This document shows, one piece after another, positions 3,321 to 30,414 of a DNA stretch of 30,414 nt. The notes under the pieces were generated by a model that saw nothing but the letters and a program-made list of their open reading frames with translations, did not search any database and had not been told where the DNA came from. The stretch lies in the IMG/VR virus record IMGVR_UViG_3300048836_000301, positions 1-30,414 of that record. One strand, 5' to 3'. Position 1 is the stretch's first letter. Every line of letters begins with the position of its first letter. This DNA comes from a virus. The position numbers and the translations under genes were made by a program.

Positions 3321-3363
3321 ATGTAGTTTGTTTATGTAGTTTGTTTATGTTGCCTGCTCACCG
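3321..3363 (-). repeat. Tandem 13-bp repeat plus second copy of the 16-bp repeat; origin-like block
   Basis: ATGTAGTTTGTTT is present twice in direct tandem (3321-3333, 3334-3346) with a partial third unit. It is followed at once by TGTTGCCTGCTCACCG (3348-3363), identical to 2695-2710 inside the replication gene. The stretch 3311-3408 contains no convincing gene. Iteron-like repeats next to an initiator gene fit a replication origin or autoregulatory site, but two units are few. Confidence 0.45.
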
Positions 3364-3408
3364 TCGCTTGTCGCTCAAATGTATTTGATGTATAGTGTTA
3401 TCTTTACG

Positions 3409-3549
3409 TTATTCTTCAATTGTTGCGTTTGAAAAGTGTTTTTCTGCCATCTCAATATATTCTTCTATAGTAATCTTCTTGTCTGTTCCCGGACACCATA
3501 CCATAAATCCACCTAAATCCATACTATAAACTAATTCTTCTATAGTCAT
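3409..3549 (-). CDS. Hypothetical 46-residue protein under a structured leader
   Basis: ATG 3549-3547 follows AAAGGAGTGAAT and the frame ends at TAA 3411-3409. The product starts MTIEELVYSMDLGGFMVWCP and ends in an acidic helix containing TIEEYIEMAEKHF. The two TIEE-containing segments give it a faint internal repeat. One cysteine is present and there is no membrane helix. The gene sits directly behind the terminator at 3567-3607 and its 5' leader, so its expression is probably conditional. I do not recognise the family. It is a good candidate for a regulatory or host-takeover peptide only because of its position. Confidence 0.6.
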   Translation of the reverse strand: MTIEELVYSMDLGGFMVWCPGTDKKITIEEYIEMAEKHFSNATIEE

Positions 3550-3566
3550 ATTCACTCCTTTAAAAC

Positions 3567-3607
3567 AAAAAAGCCCTGACTGTCGAACTGGGAAGTTCAG
3601 TCAGGGC
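3567..3607 (-). terminator. Intrinsic terminator with a second helix in its loop
   Basis: Stem GCCCTGACTG / CAGTCAGGGC (3573-3582 with 3598-3607) is a perfect 10 bp and the T-run is TTTTTTGTTTT. The 15-nt loop can form a further 4-bp helix (AACT/AGTT). The RBS of the 46-residue gene follows about 8 nt after the T-run. The loop is also complementary to the proposed transcript start at 3676-3665. Confidence 0.9.
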
Positions 3608-3676
3608 AAGAACCAAGTAAAGATATAATTTATGTCATTCTGCATCAACGATGCATATAACTTCGAACTTCCCAGT
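3567..3676 (-). ncRNA. Candidate structured small RNA or attenuating 5' leader
   Basis: This is a gene-free stretch of 168 nt (3550-3717). A TATAAT at 3688-3683 places a start near 3676. The RNA would begin ACTGGGAAGTTC (3676-3665), which pairs perfectly over 12 nt with GAACTTCCCAGT in the loop of the terminator. Between them is a small perfect hairpin, TGCATC-GTT-GATGCA (3655-3641). The 5' segment can therefore act as an antiterminator, or form a pseudoknot with an intact terminator. TCTTTACT occurs both before the start region and again about 60 nt later. No known riboswitch or phage RNA family was recognised. The structure is seen in the sequence; the function is inferred. Confidence 0.5.
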
Positions 3677-3682
3677 AAAGAA

Positions 3683-3688
3683 ATTATA
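3683..3688 (-). promoter_or_regulatory. -10 element (TATAAT) for the leader or small RNA
   Basis: A perfect TATAAT lies just after the stop of the upstream gene. Seven bases downstream is position 3676, the first base of the 12-nt antiterminator segment. No good -35 element is visible at 16-18 nt, so the promoter would be weak or need an activator. Confidence 0.45.
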
Positions 3689-3717: not shown

Positions 3718-3864
3718 CTATGAAATATGCAACTTTTTCTTTAAAATTTGTAATTCTTCATGCAAATAATCTGTTCTTTCTAACAAATGATCTATCATTT
3801 CTTTTTGATCTTTGTTTTCTTTCTTCAACTCCACTAACACCTTTATTAGAGCTTTTTCGTTCAT
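3718..3864 (-). CDS. 48-residue coiled-coil protein, in frame with the lipoprotein
   Basis: ATG 3864-3862 has an excellent AGAGGAGAGG site with 4-5 nt spacing, so independent translation is likely although the same frame is open from the lipoprotein upstream. The product (MNEKALIKVLVELKKENKDQ and on to a Lys-rich end) is one charged heptad helix, probably a dimeric coiled coil, without membrane segment or cysteine. A strong terminator hairpin (3884-3943) directly precedes its ribosome binding site. It may be a separate gene behind the lipoprotein, or the C-terminal domain of a 234-residue fusion. I favour a separate gene because of the ribosome binding site. The function is unknown. Confidence 0.6.
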   Translation of the reverse strand: MNEKALIKVLVELKKENKDQKEMIDHLLERTDYLHEELQILKKKLHIS

Positions 3865-4422
3865 ATACCTCTCCTCTCTAAATAAAAAAAAGCTATTAAC
3901 TGGGGCCACCCGAGATGCTTTGGGCAGGATGCAGTTAATAGCTAGTACAATCCACAATTCATCAAACGTATAAATATAACCAATAGTTGCATTTTTTTCT
4001 AACCCACTCTGAGGTTCTATAATCTTTCCATCAAAATAAACCATGGCATGATCAACTTTACCCCCTTCAACTACTGATCTACTAATAGTAGTGCTATCAA
4101 GAGTGATAAAGCTCATCTTCTGTTTCATTCCAAAATAAGCGATATTTATAAACAGCACAGATATATCTCCACAAGCACCTTTACCAGTAGAAAGGGTAAC
4201 TTCAGGATCTTTGTGCTCAGTGGGATCATCACTAAAATCATAAGTGACATGCTCTTTGATATACTGAGCTATCTTGACATAAGTGTCTAGAGTGTCAAAA
4301 TCACTGTGATAATAGAGTTTTTGTGATCCTAGTTGATTTTCTGTCCACTCATCTTGTACAAAATTGTATACATTCTGACAACCAGTGAGTAGAACAGCTA
4401 ATATAAAAATAAAGTATTTCAT
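3718..4422 (-). CDS. Moron-like lipoprotein with transglutaminase/cysteine-peptidase-like domain
   Basis: Residues 1-15 form a lipoprotein signal: K3, a hydrophobic stretch and lipobox LLTGC with C15 as the lipidated cysteine. After export it would be anchored to a membrane. Residues about 45-140 resemble the transglutaminase-like fold: a helix with YIKEHVTYDF, then GKGACGDISVLFINIAYFGMK with likely nucleophile C84, then VDHAMVYFDG with H125, then KIIEPQSG with E136 where an Asp is more usual. It stands alone between two terminators, with its own extended -10 promoter and no Shine-Dalgarno. This is the layout of a moron and suggests cell-surface alteration, for example superinfection exclusion; that role is inference. 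The lipoprotein domain ends near residue 160. The remainder is encoded by the terminator hairpin and the 48-residue coiled-coil gene in the same frame. Confidence 0.75.
   Translation of the reverse strand: MKYFIFILAVLLTGCQNVYNFVQDEWTENQLGSQKLYYHSDFDTLDTYVKIAQYIKEHVTYDFSDDPTEHKDPEVTLSTGKGACGDISVLFINIAYFGMKQKMSFITLDSTTISRSVVEGGKVDHAMVYFDGKIIEPQSGLEKNATIGYIYTFDELWIVLAINCILPKASRVAPVNSFFLFREERYMNEKALIKVLVELKKENKDQKEMIDHLLERTDYLHEELQILKKKLHIS
3884..3943 (-). terminator. Large terminator hairpin lying inside an open reading frame
   Basis: A perfect 12-bp stem, AGCTATTAACTG with CAGTTAATAGCT (3891-3902 and 3932-3943), is followed on the minus strand by eight T and then ATTT. The 29-nt apical part is GC-rich and can form an inner helix (CTGCCC with GGGTGG, including two wobble pairs). 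The hairpin lies in the frame that links the lipoprotein to the 48-residue coiled coil, with no stop codon before or within it. Confidence 0.85.
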
Positions 4423-4428
4423 AGTGAT

Positions 4429-4437
4429 ATTATATCA
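4429..4437 (-). promoter_or_regulatory. Extended -10 promoter for a leaderless lipoprotein mRNA
   Basis: TGATATAAT on the minus strand combines a perfect TATAAT (4434-4429) with the TGn extension. The start seven bases downstream would be 4422, the A of the lipoprotein ATG. A possible weak -35 (TTTTAG) lies 17 nt upstream. The short gap holds no ribosome binding site. Confidence 0.65.
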
Positions 4438-4458
4438 TATATCTTACATCTCTAAAAT

Positions 4459-4488
4459 AAAAAAAAGGAAGAAACTTTCATTTCTTCC
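4459..4488 (-). terminator. Intrinsic terminator ending the late (structural and lysis) transcript
   Basis: Stem GGAAGAAA / TTTCTTCC (8 bp, 4467-4474 and 4481-4488) with a 6-nt loop is followed on the minus strand by a run of eight T. It lies about 55 bp after the holin stop and just before the lipoprotein promoter. Bases 4489-4543 hold nothing else I can recognise. Confidence 0.85.
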
Positions 4489-28280: not shown

Positions 28281-28628
28281 TTATTGACTAGCAGGATCTT
28301 CATAGTGAAAATATTCTCTGATAAGATCCTTCATTCTTTGCATATATTCAGTTCTTATTTTTCTTTTCAACAGCTTATGACATTCTGAATGACAAGTTCT
28401 ACATAGTATCTGTAAATCTTCTCTTTTTTCTCTTCCCACTGTATGATAGTGAGTATGATGTAGAGTGAAAACTGTTTTCTTTAGAACCTTATTAGGATTA
28501 CGCTTACTAAACTGATATCTTCTTGTTCCACATATTTCACATACTGCATCTCTACAATTACAATACTGATCTACAAGTTTTCTCCAGTGTTCACTCTGGT
28601 AATATTCTCTAGTAGGTAATCTTTTCAC
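28281..28628 (-). CDS. HNH endonuclease next to the terminase
   Basis: This 115-residue protein has CEICG (C30, C33) and a second pair LCRTCH that bind a structural zinc, and the H-H catalytic centre TLHHTHYH, followed by ECHKLL. The beginning YYQSEHWRKLVDQ is typical of terminase-associated HNH proteins (HK97 gp74-like), which assist cutting of concatemeric DNA at cos sites together with the terminase. Its position directly before the terminase genes fits this. It overlaps the preceding gene as ATGA. It differs in type from the two NUMOD3 HNH proteins upstream and so probably serves packaging rather than homing. Confidence 0.87.
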   Translation of the reverse strand: MKRLPTREYYQSEHWRKLVDQYCNCRDAVCEICGTRRYQFSKRNPNKVLKKTVFTLHHTHYHTVGREKREDLQILCRTCHSECHKLLKRKIRTEYMQRMKDLIREYFHYEDPASQ

Positions 28629-29065
28629 TTTTTGTTTTTTTCCAATAAAGTTTTTCTGATTTTATCCTTTGTTTCTTCTGACATTTTTCTACCTTTTAGA
28701 CTTTCACTCATTTTTTTTCTTATTTTTGGATCTTGCATGGCTTTTTTTGTATTTTCACTAATTTTTTTCTTTGTTTCTTCAGAAAATTTTTTATGATTTT
28801 TATGTTTTCCTTTATTATTAATACTAATATTTTTTCTAGATTCTTCAGACATATTTTTAGAATGATAAGATCTATGATCAAAATCTGTCATACAGACTAG
28901 ATTTAATATATCGTTATTAGTTTTATCTCCATCTAAATGATGTATATGACATCTAACTCCGTTATCATCAAATGGAACTTCAACTTCCATAAACTCTTCC
29001 CATACTTTAATATGTTCTCTAACCCATCTATTACTTATAGAAGAATAATATCCTACTTTATACAT
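28625..29065 (-). CDS. Homing-type HNH endonuclease with NUMOD3 repeats (paralogue 1)
   Basis: This 146-residue protein has a first part with IKVWEEFMEVEVPFDDNGVR and the catalytic CHIHHLDGDKTNNDILNLVC, followed by FDHRSYH. The C-terminal 75 residues contain repeated basic motifs such as KFSEETKKKISENTKKA and KMSEETKDKIRKTL, matching NUMOD3 DNA-binding repeats of homing enzymes. It is clearly related to the gene at 29669-30163. The ATG overlaps the end of a 36-residue mini-gene and AGAGAGGTAAT lies in front. A free-standing homing role is likely; no intron or intein was recognised. Confidence 0.85.
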   Translation of the reverse strand: MYKVGYYSSISNRWVREHIKVWEEFMEVEVPFDDNGVRCHIHHLDGDKTNNDILNLVCMTDFDHRSYHSKNMSEESRKNISINNKGKHKNHKKFSEETKKKISENTKKAMQDPKIRKKMSESLKGRKMSEETKDKIRKTLLEKNKK

Positions 29066-29163
29066 ATTACCTCTCTAATTGTCACCCAGTGTCCAAATAG
29101 ATTTAGTTGCCAAACTGTCACTGTACCTGAATGATCTGTTTCAAACACTCTCTTCTTTATCAT
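29053..29163 (-). CDS. Hypothetical 36-residue protein
   Basis: ATG 29163-29161 overlaps the TGA of the zinc-ribbon gene as ATGA and has AAAGGAGTGAGAA in front. The stop TAG overlaps the start of the HNH gene by 13 nt. The product starts MIKKRVFETDHSGTVTVWQL and looks like a single small beta sheet with two Trp. It is too short for a family assignment. The tight ATGA coupling and ribosome binding site support translation. Confidence 0.5.
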   Translation of the reverse strand: MIKKRVFETDHSGTVTVWQLNLFGHWVTIREVICIK

Positions 29164-29435
29164 TTCTCACTCCTTTTTCTAGCTGCATATTCTCTCATCT
29201 TCTGTTTCTTTATTTCATATATACCAGAAAGATCTCTACATTCATCTGAACAGTACTTAGCTGTTGCCGATCCTGCTTCAAACTCTGTGTCACATACTTT
29301 ACATTTAACTTTATAAACTTTTCTTTCTTTTTCAACTGGCTTAGGAACTAGAACAACATCTTTATATTTTTCTCTCATCTCTTCTGACCATATTCTTTTT
29401 TTTCTTTCTTCCCATATTTCTTCATAGATTTTCAT
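29160..29435 (-). CDS. Zinc-ribbon protein (91 residues)
   Basis: A highly charged N-terminal helix (EEIWEERKKRIWSEEM) leads to a four-cysteine zinc ribbon (KCKVCDTEFEAG, then AKYCSDECRD: C-x2-C ... C-x3-C, residues about 47-67), then a basic helix (KKQKMREYAARKRSEK) suited to nucleic-acid contact. Such small ribbons in phages act as transcription or DNA-binding adaptors. Overlaps of 14 nt with the previous gene and ATGA with the next show a coupled unit. Its ribosome binding site (AGGACAAT) is modest. The zinc site is convincing; the role is unknown. Confidence 0.78.
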   Translation of the reverse strand: MKIYEEIWEERKKRIWSEEMREKYKDVVLVPKPVEKERKVYKVKCKVCDTEFEAGSATAKYCSDECRDLSGIYEIKKQKMREYAARKRSEK

Positions 29436-29691
29436 ATAATTGTCCTATTCTTCTATCTGTATCTTTATGCTCGTAATAACTTTCATTCAACATATCTGAC
29501 CAAAGTTCTTCTGTTGGTTTTAGAAGCTCTGGATTTATATATCTAGAATTTTCTTGTAGGTAATTTTTTACACCAGAATAATTTTCAAAATATATATAAA
29601 TTCCTTTTTTATTAAATAAATATTCTTCTATGTAACTAATAATATCTTTGTAAATTAGATCACTAGAATTAATTTGCTCTATGATTTCCAT
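29422..29691 (-). CDS. Hypothetical 89-residue acidic protein
   Basis: The product starts MEIIEQINSSDLIYKDIISY and is acidic and helical, with several Tyr (GIYIYFENYSGVKNYLQ) and an end with DTDRRIGQLYENL. It lacks cysteines and a membrane span. The start lies inside the end of the HNH paralogue 2 gene (23-nt overlap), with GGAAAGATT as a weak ribosome binding site, and its end overlaps the zinc-ribbon gene. No family was recognised. Confidence 0.65.
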   Translation of the reverse strand: MEIIEQINSSDLIYKDIISYIEEYLFNKKGIYIYFENYSGVKNYLQENSRYINPELLKPTEELWSDMLNESYYEHKDTDRRIGQLYENL

Positions 29692-30163
29692 AATCTTTCC
29701 TTGTTTTTCTAACTATATTTTTCATATTATATTTCATACCTATATGTGATTTTCCAATATTCTCTCTATGTTCTAAAGTCTTTTTTATTCCTTTTCTATT
29801 ATCTGACATATTTTTTTTAGTTTCATCACTATGTTTATGTCCTTTACATGATTTTCCTTTTTTACTTTTTGAAATATTATTTTTATGTTCCTTATTCATA
29901 TTATTTGCATGATATCTATGATGTTCAGATTCTGTCATACAAGCTAGATTTCTAATATCGTTGTTTTTCTTATTTCCATCTAAGTGATGAATATGACATC
30001 TTACTCCATTCTCGTCAAAAGGAACTTCAACCTGCATGAAATCTTCCCAAATTTTAACATGTTCAAAAACTCTTCTACCGTTTGAAACAACTTGTTTACC
30101 ATATTTATCTTTCATTTTGTTTTTCCTTTTTTCAATCTTTTCTATTATATCAGTTTTGCTCAC
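29669..30163 (-). CDS. Homing-type HNH endonuclease with NUMOD3-like tail (paralogue 2)
   Basis: From GTG 30163 the product has 164 residues. The frame stays open to a TTG at 30208, but AAAGGAG lies eight bases before GTG 30163. It has a basic N-terminal helix, then HVKIWEDFMQVEVPFDENGV, the catalytic CHIHHLDGNKKNNDIRNLAC and EHHRYH, and a basic repeat tail (KHSDETKKNMSDNRKG, KTLEHRENIGKSHIG) of NUMOD3 type. It resembles paralogue 1 over the whole catalytic part in protein and DNA. The extra N-terminal 20-30 residues are the main difference. It overlaps the next gene by 23 nt. Confidence 0.83.
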   Translation of the reverse strand: MSKTDIIEKIEKRKNKMKDKYGKQVVSNGRRVFEHVKIWEDFMQVEVPFDENGVRCHIHHLDGNKKNNDIRNLACMTESEHHRYHANNMNKEHKNNISKSKKGKSCKGHKHSDETKKNMSDNRKGIKKTLEHRENIGKSHIGMKYNMKNIVRKTRKDYGNHRAN

Positions 30164-30189
30164 AACATCTTCTCCTTTATAACTATGCT

Positions 30190-30414
30190 TTATAGAGAGT
30201 ATTTCCAAATATGTTTATCTTGTATATCATCTAAGGGAACTATCCAGTTCCAAGATCCTGTTGTTTTTCCAGAATATGTTAATTTATAATCATTTTTCTC
30301 AATTAGTCGTTTTAATTCTGACCAAGAACAATCTATAAATGTAAACTCTTTGATATCTGATCTTCTTGTTAATATAGTTCTTCCTTTAGTTGGACAAATA
30401 GAATGATATAAAAA
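30190..30414 (-). CDS. C-terminal part of the junction-spanning hypothetical protein (with duplicated overlap)
   Basis: This is the continuation of the gene that starts at 427. Bases 30288-30414 repeat the start of the window, so only 30190-30287 is new sequence. It encodes the end with YSGKTTGSWNWIVPLDD and closes with IWKYSL and TAA. It should be merged with 1-427 into a single 174-residue gene. Confidence 0.8.
   Translation of the reverse strand, partial: FLYHSICPTKGRTILTRRSDIKEFTFIDCSWSELKRLIEKNDYKLTYSGKTTGSWNWIVPLDDIQDKHIWKYSL
30288..30414. repeat. 127-bp direct terminal overlap, right copy
   Basis: Identical to bases 1-127. One copy should be removed when the genome is circularised. 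Confidence 0.95.

What the first reader, a model, noticed from the sequence alone, without database searches (positions are those of the whole stretch)
3550..3688. Structured leader or small RNA with a 12-nt antiterminator exactly at the predicted transcript start
TATAAT at 3688-3683 predicts a start near 3676. The first 12 bases, ACTGGGAAGTTC, are perfectly complementary to GAACTTCCCAGT in the loop of a strong intrinsic terminator (3567-3607). A perfect small hairpin lies between, and the ribosome binding site of a 46-residue gene follows the T-run. Two exclusive states (terminator, or 5' segment paired with its loop) or a pseudoknot are possible. This is riboswitch- or attenuator-like architecture, and no known family was recognised. 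A stand-alone sRNA is the alternative.
Basis: partly seen in the sequence, partly recalled or inferred. Interest (0 to 1): 0.8.

Follow-up and report, generated by a model that had tools for sequence, protein, structure and literature searches.

The report
Bistable terminator RNA in phage leader
A small RNA region in an isolated phage genome can fold either as a transcription stop signal or with its very first 12 bases clamped onto the loop of that stop signal; this probably sets how often RNA polymerase reads on into a tiny downstream gene, but no relative could be found to show that evolution has kept it.

Summary
On the minus strand, ACTGGGAAGTTC (3676-3665) is perfectly complementary to GAACTTCCCAGT (3598-3587). 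That second segment fills most of the loop of a 10-bp intrinsic terminator (3607-3573, T-run 3572-3567), and a 46-codon gene (3549-3409) follows. Dinucleotide shuffles expect 0.01 such GC-balanced 12-bp pairs in the whole window. Among about 280 other terminators no loop had more than 10 nt of upstream complementarity. A perfect TATAAT puts the predicted start exactly on the first base of the 12-mer, but there is no -35.

The terminator fold (-30.4 kcal/mol) and the long-range fold (-30.9) are equally stable, with a barrier near 22 kcal/mol. The long-range helix becomes available first during transcription. The best reading is a kinetically controlled attenuator giving part read-through and a ~110-nt RNA. 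A locked stable sRNA is the main rival.

No Rfam family matches. No usable relative was found in IMG/VR, GTDB, phage or plasmid collections (nearest near-full-length terminase 41% identity), so conservation and covariation, the decisive test, could not be run.

The parts
3683..3688 (-). TATAAT, candidate -10 (no -35: best 2 of 6; no extended TG)
   Evidence: 27 perfect TATAAT on the whole minus strand, so about 0.003 to have one 6-8 nt before the 12-mer by uniform chance (inference from that count)
3665..3676 (-). 5' segment A, ACTGGGAAGTTC, starting at the predicted +1
3641..3655 (-). perfect 6-bp hairpin TGCATC-GTT-GATGCA (P2, extended by an outer 5-bp helix)
3598..3607 (-). terminator 5' arm GCCCTGACTG
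3587..3598 (-). loop segment A', GAACTTCCCAGT, perfect complement of A; shares only G3598 with the terminator stem
3573..3582 (-). terminator 3' arm CAGTCAGGGC
3567..3572 (-). U-tract TTTTTT
3555..3561 (-). ribosome-binding site AAAGGAG of the small gene
3409..3549 (-). 46-codon gene p46 (GTG alternative start at 3555), no family match

Best explanation
A cis-acting transcription attenuator at the junction between the phage's lysis genes and its replication region. RNA starting at 3676 (or running through from the lysis operon) folds in one of two ways: the intrinsic terminator 3607-3573, which releases an RNA of about 110 nt, or a long-range helix in which nucleotides +1 to +12 clamp the terminator's loop. 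The clamp is available first and competes with terminator folding, so part of the polymerases read through into p46 and possibly on towards rep. Anything that occupied the first 12 nt (a protein, a ribosome, another RNA) would shift the outcome towards termination. Shown: sequence, statistics, two equally stable predicted folds, order of availability. Inferred: that the RNA is made, that the clamp lowers termination, that p46 is the target.
For: 12-bp complementarity far beyond chance and anchored exactly at the predicted +1. Terminator -30.4 versus long-range -30.9 kcal/mol, refolding barrier about 22 kcal/mol, ensemble 0.69/0.28 at 37 C. With 8-14 nt hidden in polymerase, 10-12 long-range pairs can form before the first terminator pairs emerge. 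The T-run is on this strand only and is followed directly by an RBS and an ORF. A described Listeria leader, Rli51, is predicted to use the same logic: the 5'-end segment pairs with the terminator hairpin as antiterminator, and a 121-nt RNA is released (PMC11394854).
Against: The clamp pairs with the loop and shares one stem base pair, so the terminator might form under it as a pseudoknot. The promoter lacks a -35. No relative exists to show conservation. p46 has no known function and no regulator is known. Local apical folding of GAACT-TCCC-AGTTC could outrun the long-range helix.
Confidence: 0.45

Rival explanations
1. A stand-alone phage sRNA of about 110 nt ending at the terminator, whose 5' end is locked by long-range pairing or an H-type pseudoknot (up to 12-bp and 9-bp helices) that protects the 5' end or presents the P2 hairpin; read-through into p46 is incidental.
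For: Own promoter-like TATAAT and strong terminator; complementarity ends exactly at +1, as expected for 5'-end sealing; distance across 12 bp is 33.6 A against 5 linker nucleotides, borderline feasible; 5'-3' long-distance pairing that makes transcripts very stable is described for hok and aapA mRNAs (PMC6733600).
Against: A gene with a well-placed RBS follows the T-run directly; no trans target of the 12-mer stands out in the phage (22 matches with up to 3 mismatches against 20.6 expected).
Confidence: 0.27
2. A DNA-level feature: two inverted copies of a quasi-palindromic site (GAACTTCCCAGTTC-like) bound by a phage repressor, one on the transcription start and one in the terminator, with the RNA pairing a by-product.
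For: Each copy is nearly palindromic; site 1 covers +1 to +12, a classical operator position (sequence).
Against: Only two copies in the genome, one buried in a terminator loop; no repressor gene recognised among the neighbourhood proteins scanned; the match ends abruptly at +1 rather than following the palindrome.
Confidence: 0.1
3. An ordinary terminator separating late and replication genes, with a neutral or chance inverted copy of its loop upstream.
For: Four terminator-then-RBS junctions lie close together here (4488, 3943, 3607, 3306), so insulation between modules is a sufficient reason for a terminator; conservation untested.
Against: 0.01 expected by shuffles, extreme outlier among about 280 terminators, and exact alignment with the predicted +1.
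Confidence: 0.15

Closest known systems
Rli51 leader of mpl, Listeria monocytogenes (PMC11394854)
   Same: Short leader (121 nt) ending at an intrinsic terminator before a gene; predicted antiterminator made by the 5'-end segment pairing with the terminator hairpin; terminated product is an sRNA
   Different: [quoted passage not shown] here it targets the loop, the states are isoenergetic, and the element is in a phage; no sequence relation was tested
aapA / hok mRNAs with 5'-3' long-distance interaction (PMC6733600)
   Same: The extreme 5' region pairs with a 3' structural element
   Different: Those mRNAs encode a toxin between the ends and the pairing hides its ribosome-binding site; here the RNA holds only a 14-codon frame without an RBS
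Type III toxin-antitoxin leaders (described in PMC8167048)
   Same: RNA, then intrinsic terminator, then a gene reached by read-through
   Different: No tandem repeats in the RNA, and the gene is a 46-codon ORF without any PADLOC match

Membership tests
Terminator/antiterminator attenuator (mechanistic class) | intrinsic terminator upstream of a gene in the same transcript | tested here: met
Terminator/antiterminator attenuator (mechanistic class) | alternative fold of comparable stability that uses terminator sequence | tested here: met
   -30.4 v -30.9 kcal/mol
Terminator/antiterminator attenuator (mechanistic class) | the two folds exclude each other | tested here: inconclusive
   one shared base pair; pseudoknot geometry borderline
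Terminator/antiterminator attenuator (mechanistic class) | covariation or conservation of both states | not testable with these tools
   no usable relatives found
Terminator/antiterminator attenuator (mechanistic class) | a signal or the alternative fold changes read-through | not testable with these tools
   needs in vitro transcription
Riboswitch / any Rfam family | match to a described covariance model | tested here: not met
   none at gathering score; best sub-threshold hit is on the opposite strand, 28.8 v 88 bits, read as a chance hairpin match
Type III toxin-antitoxin | tandem repeats in the antitoxin RNA | tested here: not met
   no tandem array within 3567-3676
Type III toxin-antitoxin | ToxN/AbiQ/CptN/TenpN-like toxin downstream | tested here: not met
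   no match of p46 in PADLOC, Pfam, NCBIfam or PHROGs
Leader-peptide attenuator | translated leader ORF reaching into the terminator | tested here: inconclusive
   14-codon frame 3645-3601 (MQNDINYIFTWFLP, stop inside the terminator 5' arm) but no ribosome-binding site before it (sequence)

The most novel reading that the evidence does not exclude
A minimal attenuator in which the transcript's first 12 nucleotides clamp the loop, not the stem, of its own terminator, tuning termination through a kinetic race or a pseudoknot without any ligand or leader peptide.
Probability: 0.2. Interest if true: 0.55.

Novelty: new variant of a known kind. Interest (0 to 1): 0.38.

Why it matters
If true, it would be a very compact self-contained phage attenuator in which the 5' end of the RNA reads the terminator loop, a simple design for testing whether loop clamping alone controls intrinsic termination. 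It also marks a control point between the lysis and replication modules of a phage with no close known relatives.

Tried and rejected
Relatives were sought with the core inverted-repeat pattern (20 hits; read by eye, none is followed by a T-run terminator like the window's and most look like GC-rich coding DNA), an exact 17-mer (0 hits), and with rep, the transglutaminase-like protein, p46, portal, capsid and terminase: nothing closer than 41% identity for near-full-length terminase and 33% for capsid. Plasmids gave no match. The phage-database DNA hits are 25-27-nt terminator-plus-RBS matches in T4-like phages, of no significance. Type III toxin-antitoxin: no repeats, no toxin family. Leader-peptide attenuator: a 14-codon frame ends inside the terminator arm and is rich in aromatic residues, but has no RBS; not adopted. 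LexA-type operator: the spacing of GAAC and GTTC is 6, not the 4 of the Gram-positive box (own knowledge); rejected. A second copy of the architecture at the neighbouring terminator 3943-3891 was looked for: its 29-nt loop has only a 4-nt upstream complement. Targets of the 12-mer elsewhere in the phage: no excess over chance. Literature searches for a described loop-clamping phage attenuator returned nothing direct.

Full report
What was checked. The window is a complete phage genome: its first ~127 bases recur at 30288-30414, so the circular unit is about 30,287 bp, 32% GC. The recognisable genes are on the minus strand: terminase, portal, capsid, tail, collagen-like fibre, endolysin (5302-4871), holin-like (4870-4544), a transglutaminase-fold lipoprotein (from 4422), a 48-codon ORF (3864-3718), the element, a 46-codon ORF p46 (3549-3409), and an O-like replication initiator (3257-2361).

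The observation. ACTGGGAAGTTC (3676-3665) and GAACTTCCCAGT (3598-3587) are perfectly complementary, 66 nt apart. In 100 dinucleotide shuffles of the window, inverted repeats this long, at least 20 nt apart and with at least six G/C occur 0.01 times on average. Over 193 terminators, the window's included, in 185 fetched sequences (2.47 Mb), this one has a 12-nt loop complement and the next best has 8; a shuffled null reaches 9. In AT-rich comparison phages (T4, SPbeta, a Flavobacterium phage) and four capsid relatives the best is a 10-nt A/T-only match. A perfect TATAAT places +1 exactly at the first base of the complement. With 27 such hexamers on the whole minus strand this coincidence has a chance of roughly 0.003, perhaps 0.01 after allowing for AT-rich intergenic DNA (inference). 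There is no -35.

Folding. The +1 to U-tract RNA (110 nt) has two folds of equal predicted energy: terminator with an apical extension, -30.4, and long-range helix, -30.9 kcal/mol. A path search gives a barrier near 22 kcal/mol, so whichever forms during transcription would persist. Ensemble probabilities at 37 C are 0.69 (terminator) and 0.28 (long-range). When 8-14 nt are treated as hidden in polymerase, 10-12 long-range pairs are available before any terminator pair emerges. The order of events therefore favours the long-range helix, although the small apical hairpin GAACT-TCCC-AGTTC is local and could compete. The 116-nt region folds better than 196 of 200 shuffles (z -2.8).

Exclusive or pseudoknot? 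The clamp pairs with the loop and shares one base (G3598) with the terminator stem. In idealised A-form geometry the linker TCGAC (5 nt) would have to bridge 33.6 A across a 12-bp helix, or 25-29 A if only 9-10 pairs form. At 6-7 A per nucleotide this is borderline.

What it most likely does. I take it to be an attenuator: a share of transcripts terminates, giving a ~110-nt RNA, and a share reads into p46 and perhaps towards rep, with the race between clamp and terminator setting the ratio. The logic is close to Rli51 of Listeria, a 121-nt leader whose 5' segment is predicted to pair with its terminator and whose terminated product acts as an sRNA (PMC11394854). It resembles aapA and hok transcripts in that the 5' end pairs with a 3' structure (PMC6733600), but without a toxin frame. 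Neither is a claim of homology.

What could not be shown. No relative was found that could test conservation. Terminase hits that span the protein top out at 41% identity in IMG/VR and 38% in GTDB genomes, capsid at 33%, and rep, portal, the lipoprotein and p46 have none in IMG/VR. The core sequence was found in no comparable terminator of the viral collection. The collections may leave out near-identical records. Without relatives there is no covariation, and the element rests on one sequence.

Verdict. A real, statistically exceptional and well-formed two-state RNA, probably a phage attenuator, of moderate interest; not shown to be functional, with no evidence for a riboswitch, and not a member of a described RNA family.

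Noticed in passing
1-127 and 30288-30414: Direct terminal repeat of about 127 bp: the contig is a complete, circularly assembled phage genome of about 30,287 bp.
   Followed up: yes
3335-3368 and 2682-2715: 34-nt direct repeat (79%; core GGTGAGCAGGCAACA identical) just upstream of and inside the replication initiator gene: candidate origin iterons; a 13-bp tandem repeat (AAACAAACTACAT, 2.3 copies) lies at 3350-3321.
   Followed up: partly
3718-4422: The transglutaminase-like lipoprotein frame runs without a stop through a 12-bp terminator-like hairpin (3943-3891, 29-nt GC-rich loop, T8) and in frame into the next small ORF (ATG 3864): a frameshift, a sequencing error or a hairpin inside a coding region.
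   Followed up: partly
4435-4465 and 3861-3891: 31-nt repeat (81%) of T-run plus leader and RBS before two successive genes; several genes here are preceded by terminator then RBS (4488-4467, 3943-3891, 3607-3573, 3306-3281).
   Followed up: no
3715-3703 and 3411-3399: TAACGYAAAGATA occurs twice without mismatch, just after or across the stop codons of the two small ORFs.
   Followed up: no
3690-3671 and 3632-3613: The promoter/+1 region is partly repeated inside the RNA (TATATAATTTCTTTACTGGG v TAAATTATATCTTTACTTGG, 80%).
   Followed up: no
3645-3601: 14-codon frame MQNDINYIFTWFLP whose UGA lies in the terminator 5' arm; no ribosome-binding site.
   Followed up: partly
28281-30208: Cluster of three HNH-endonuclease-like ORFs next to the small terminase gene (read from the sequence, no family search run on them).
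   Followed up: no
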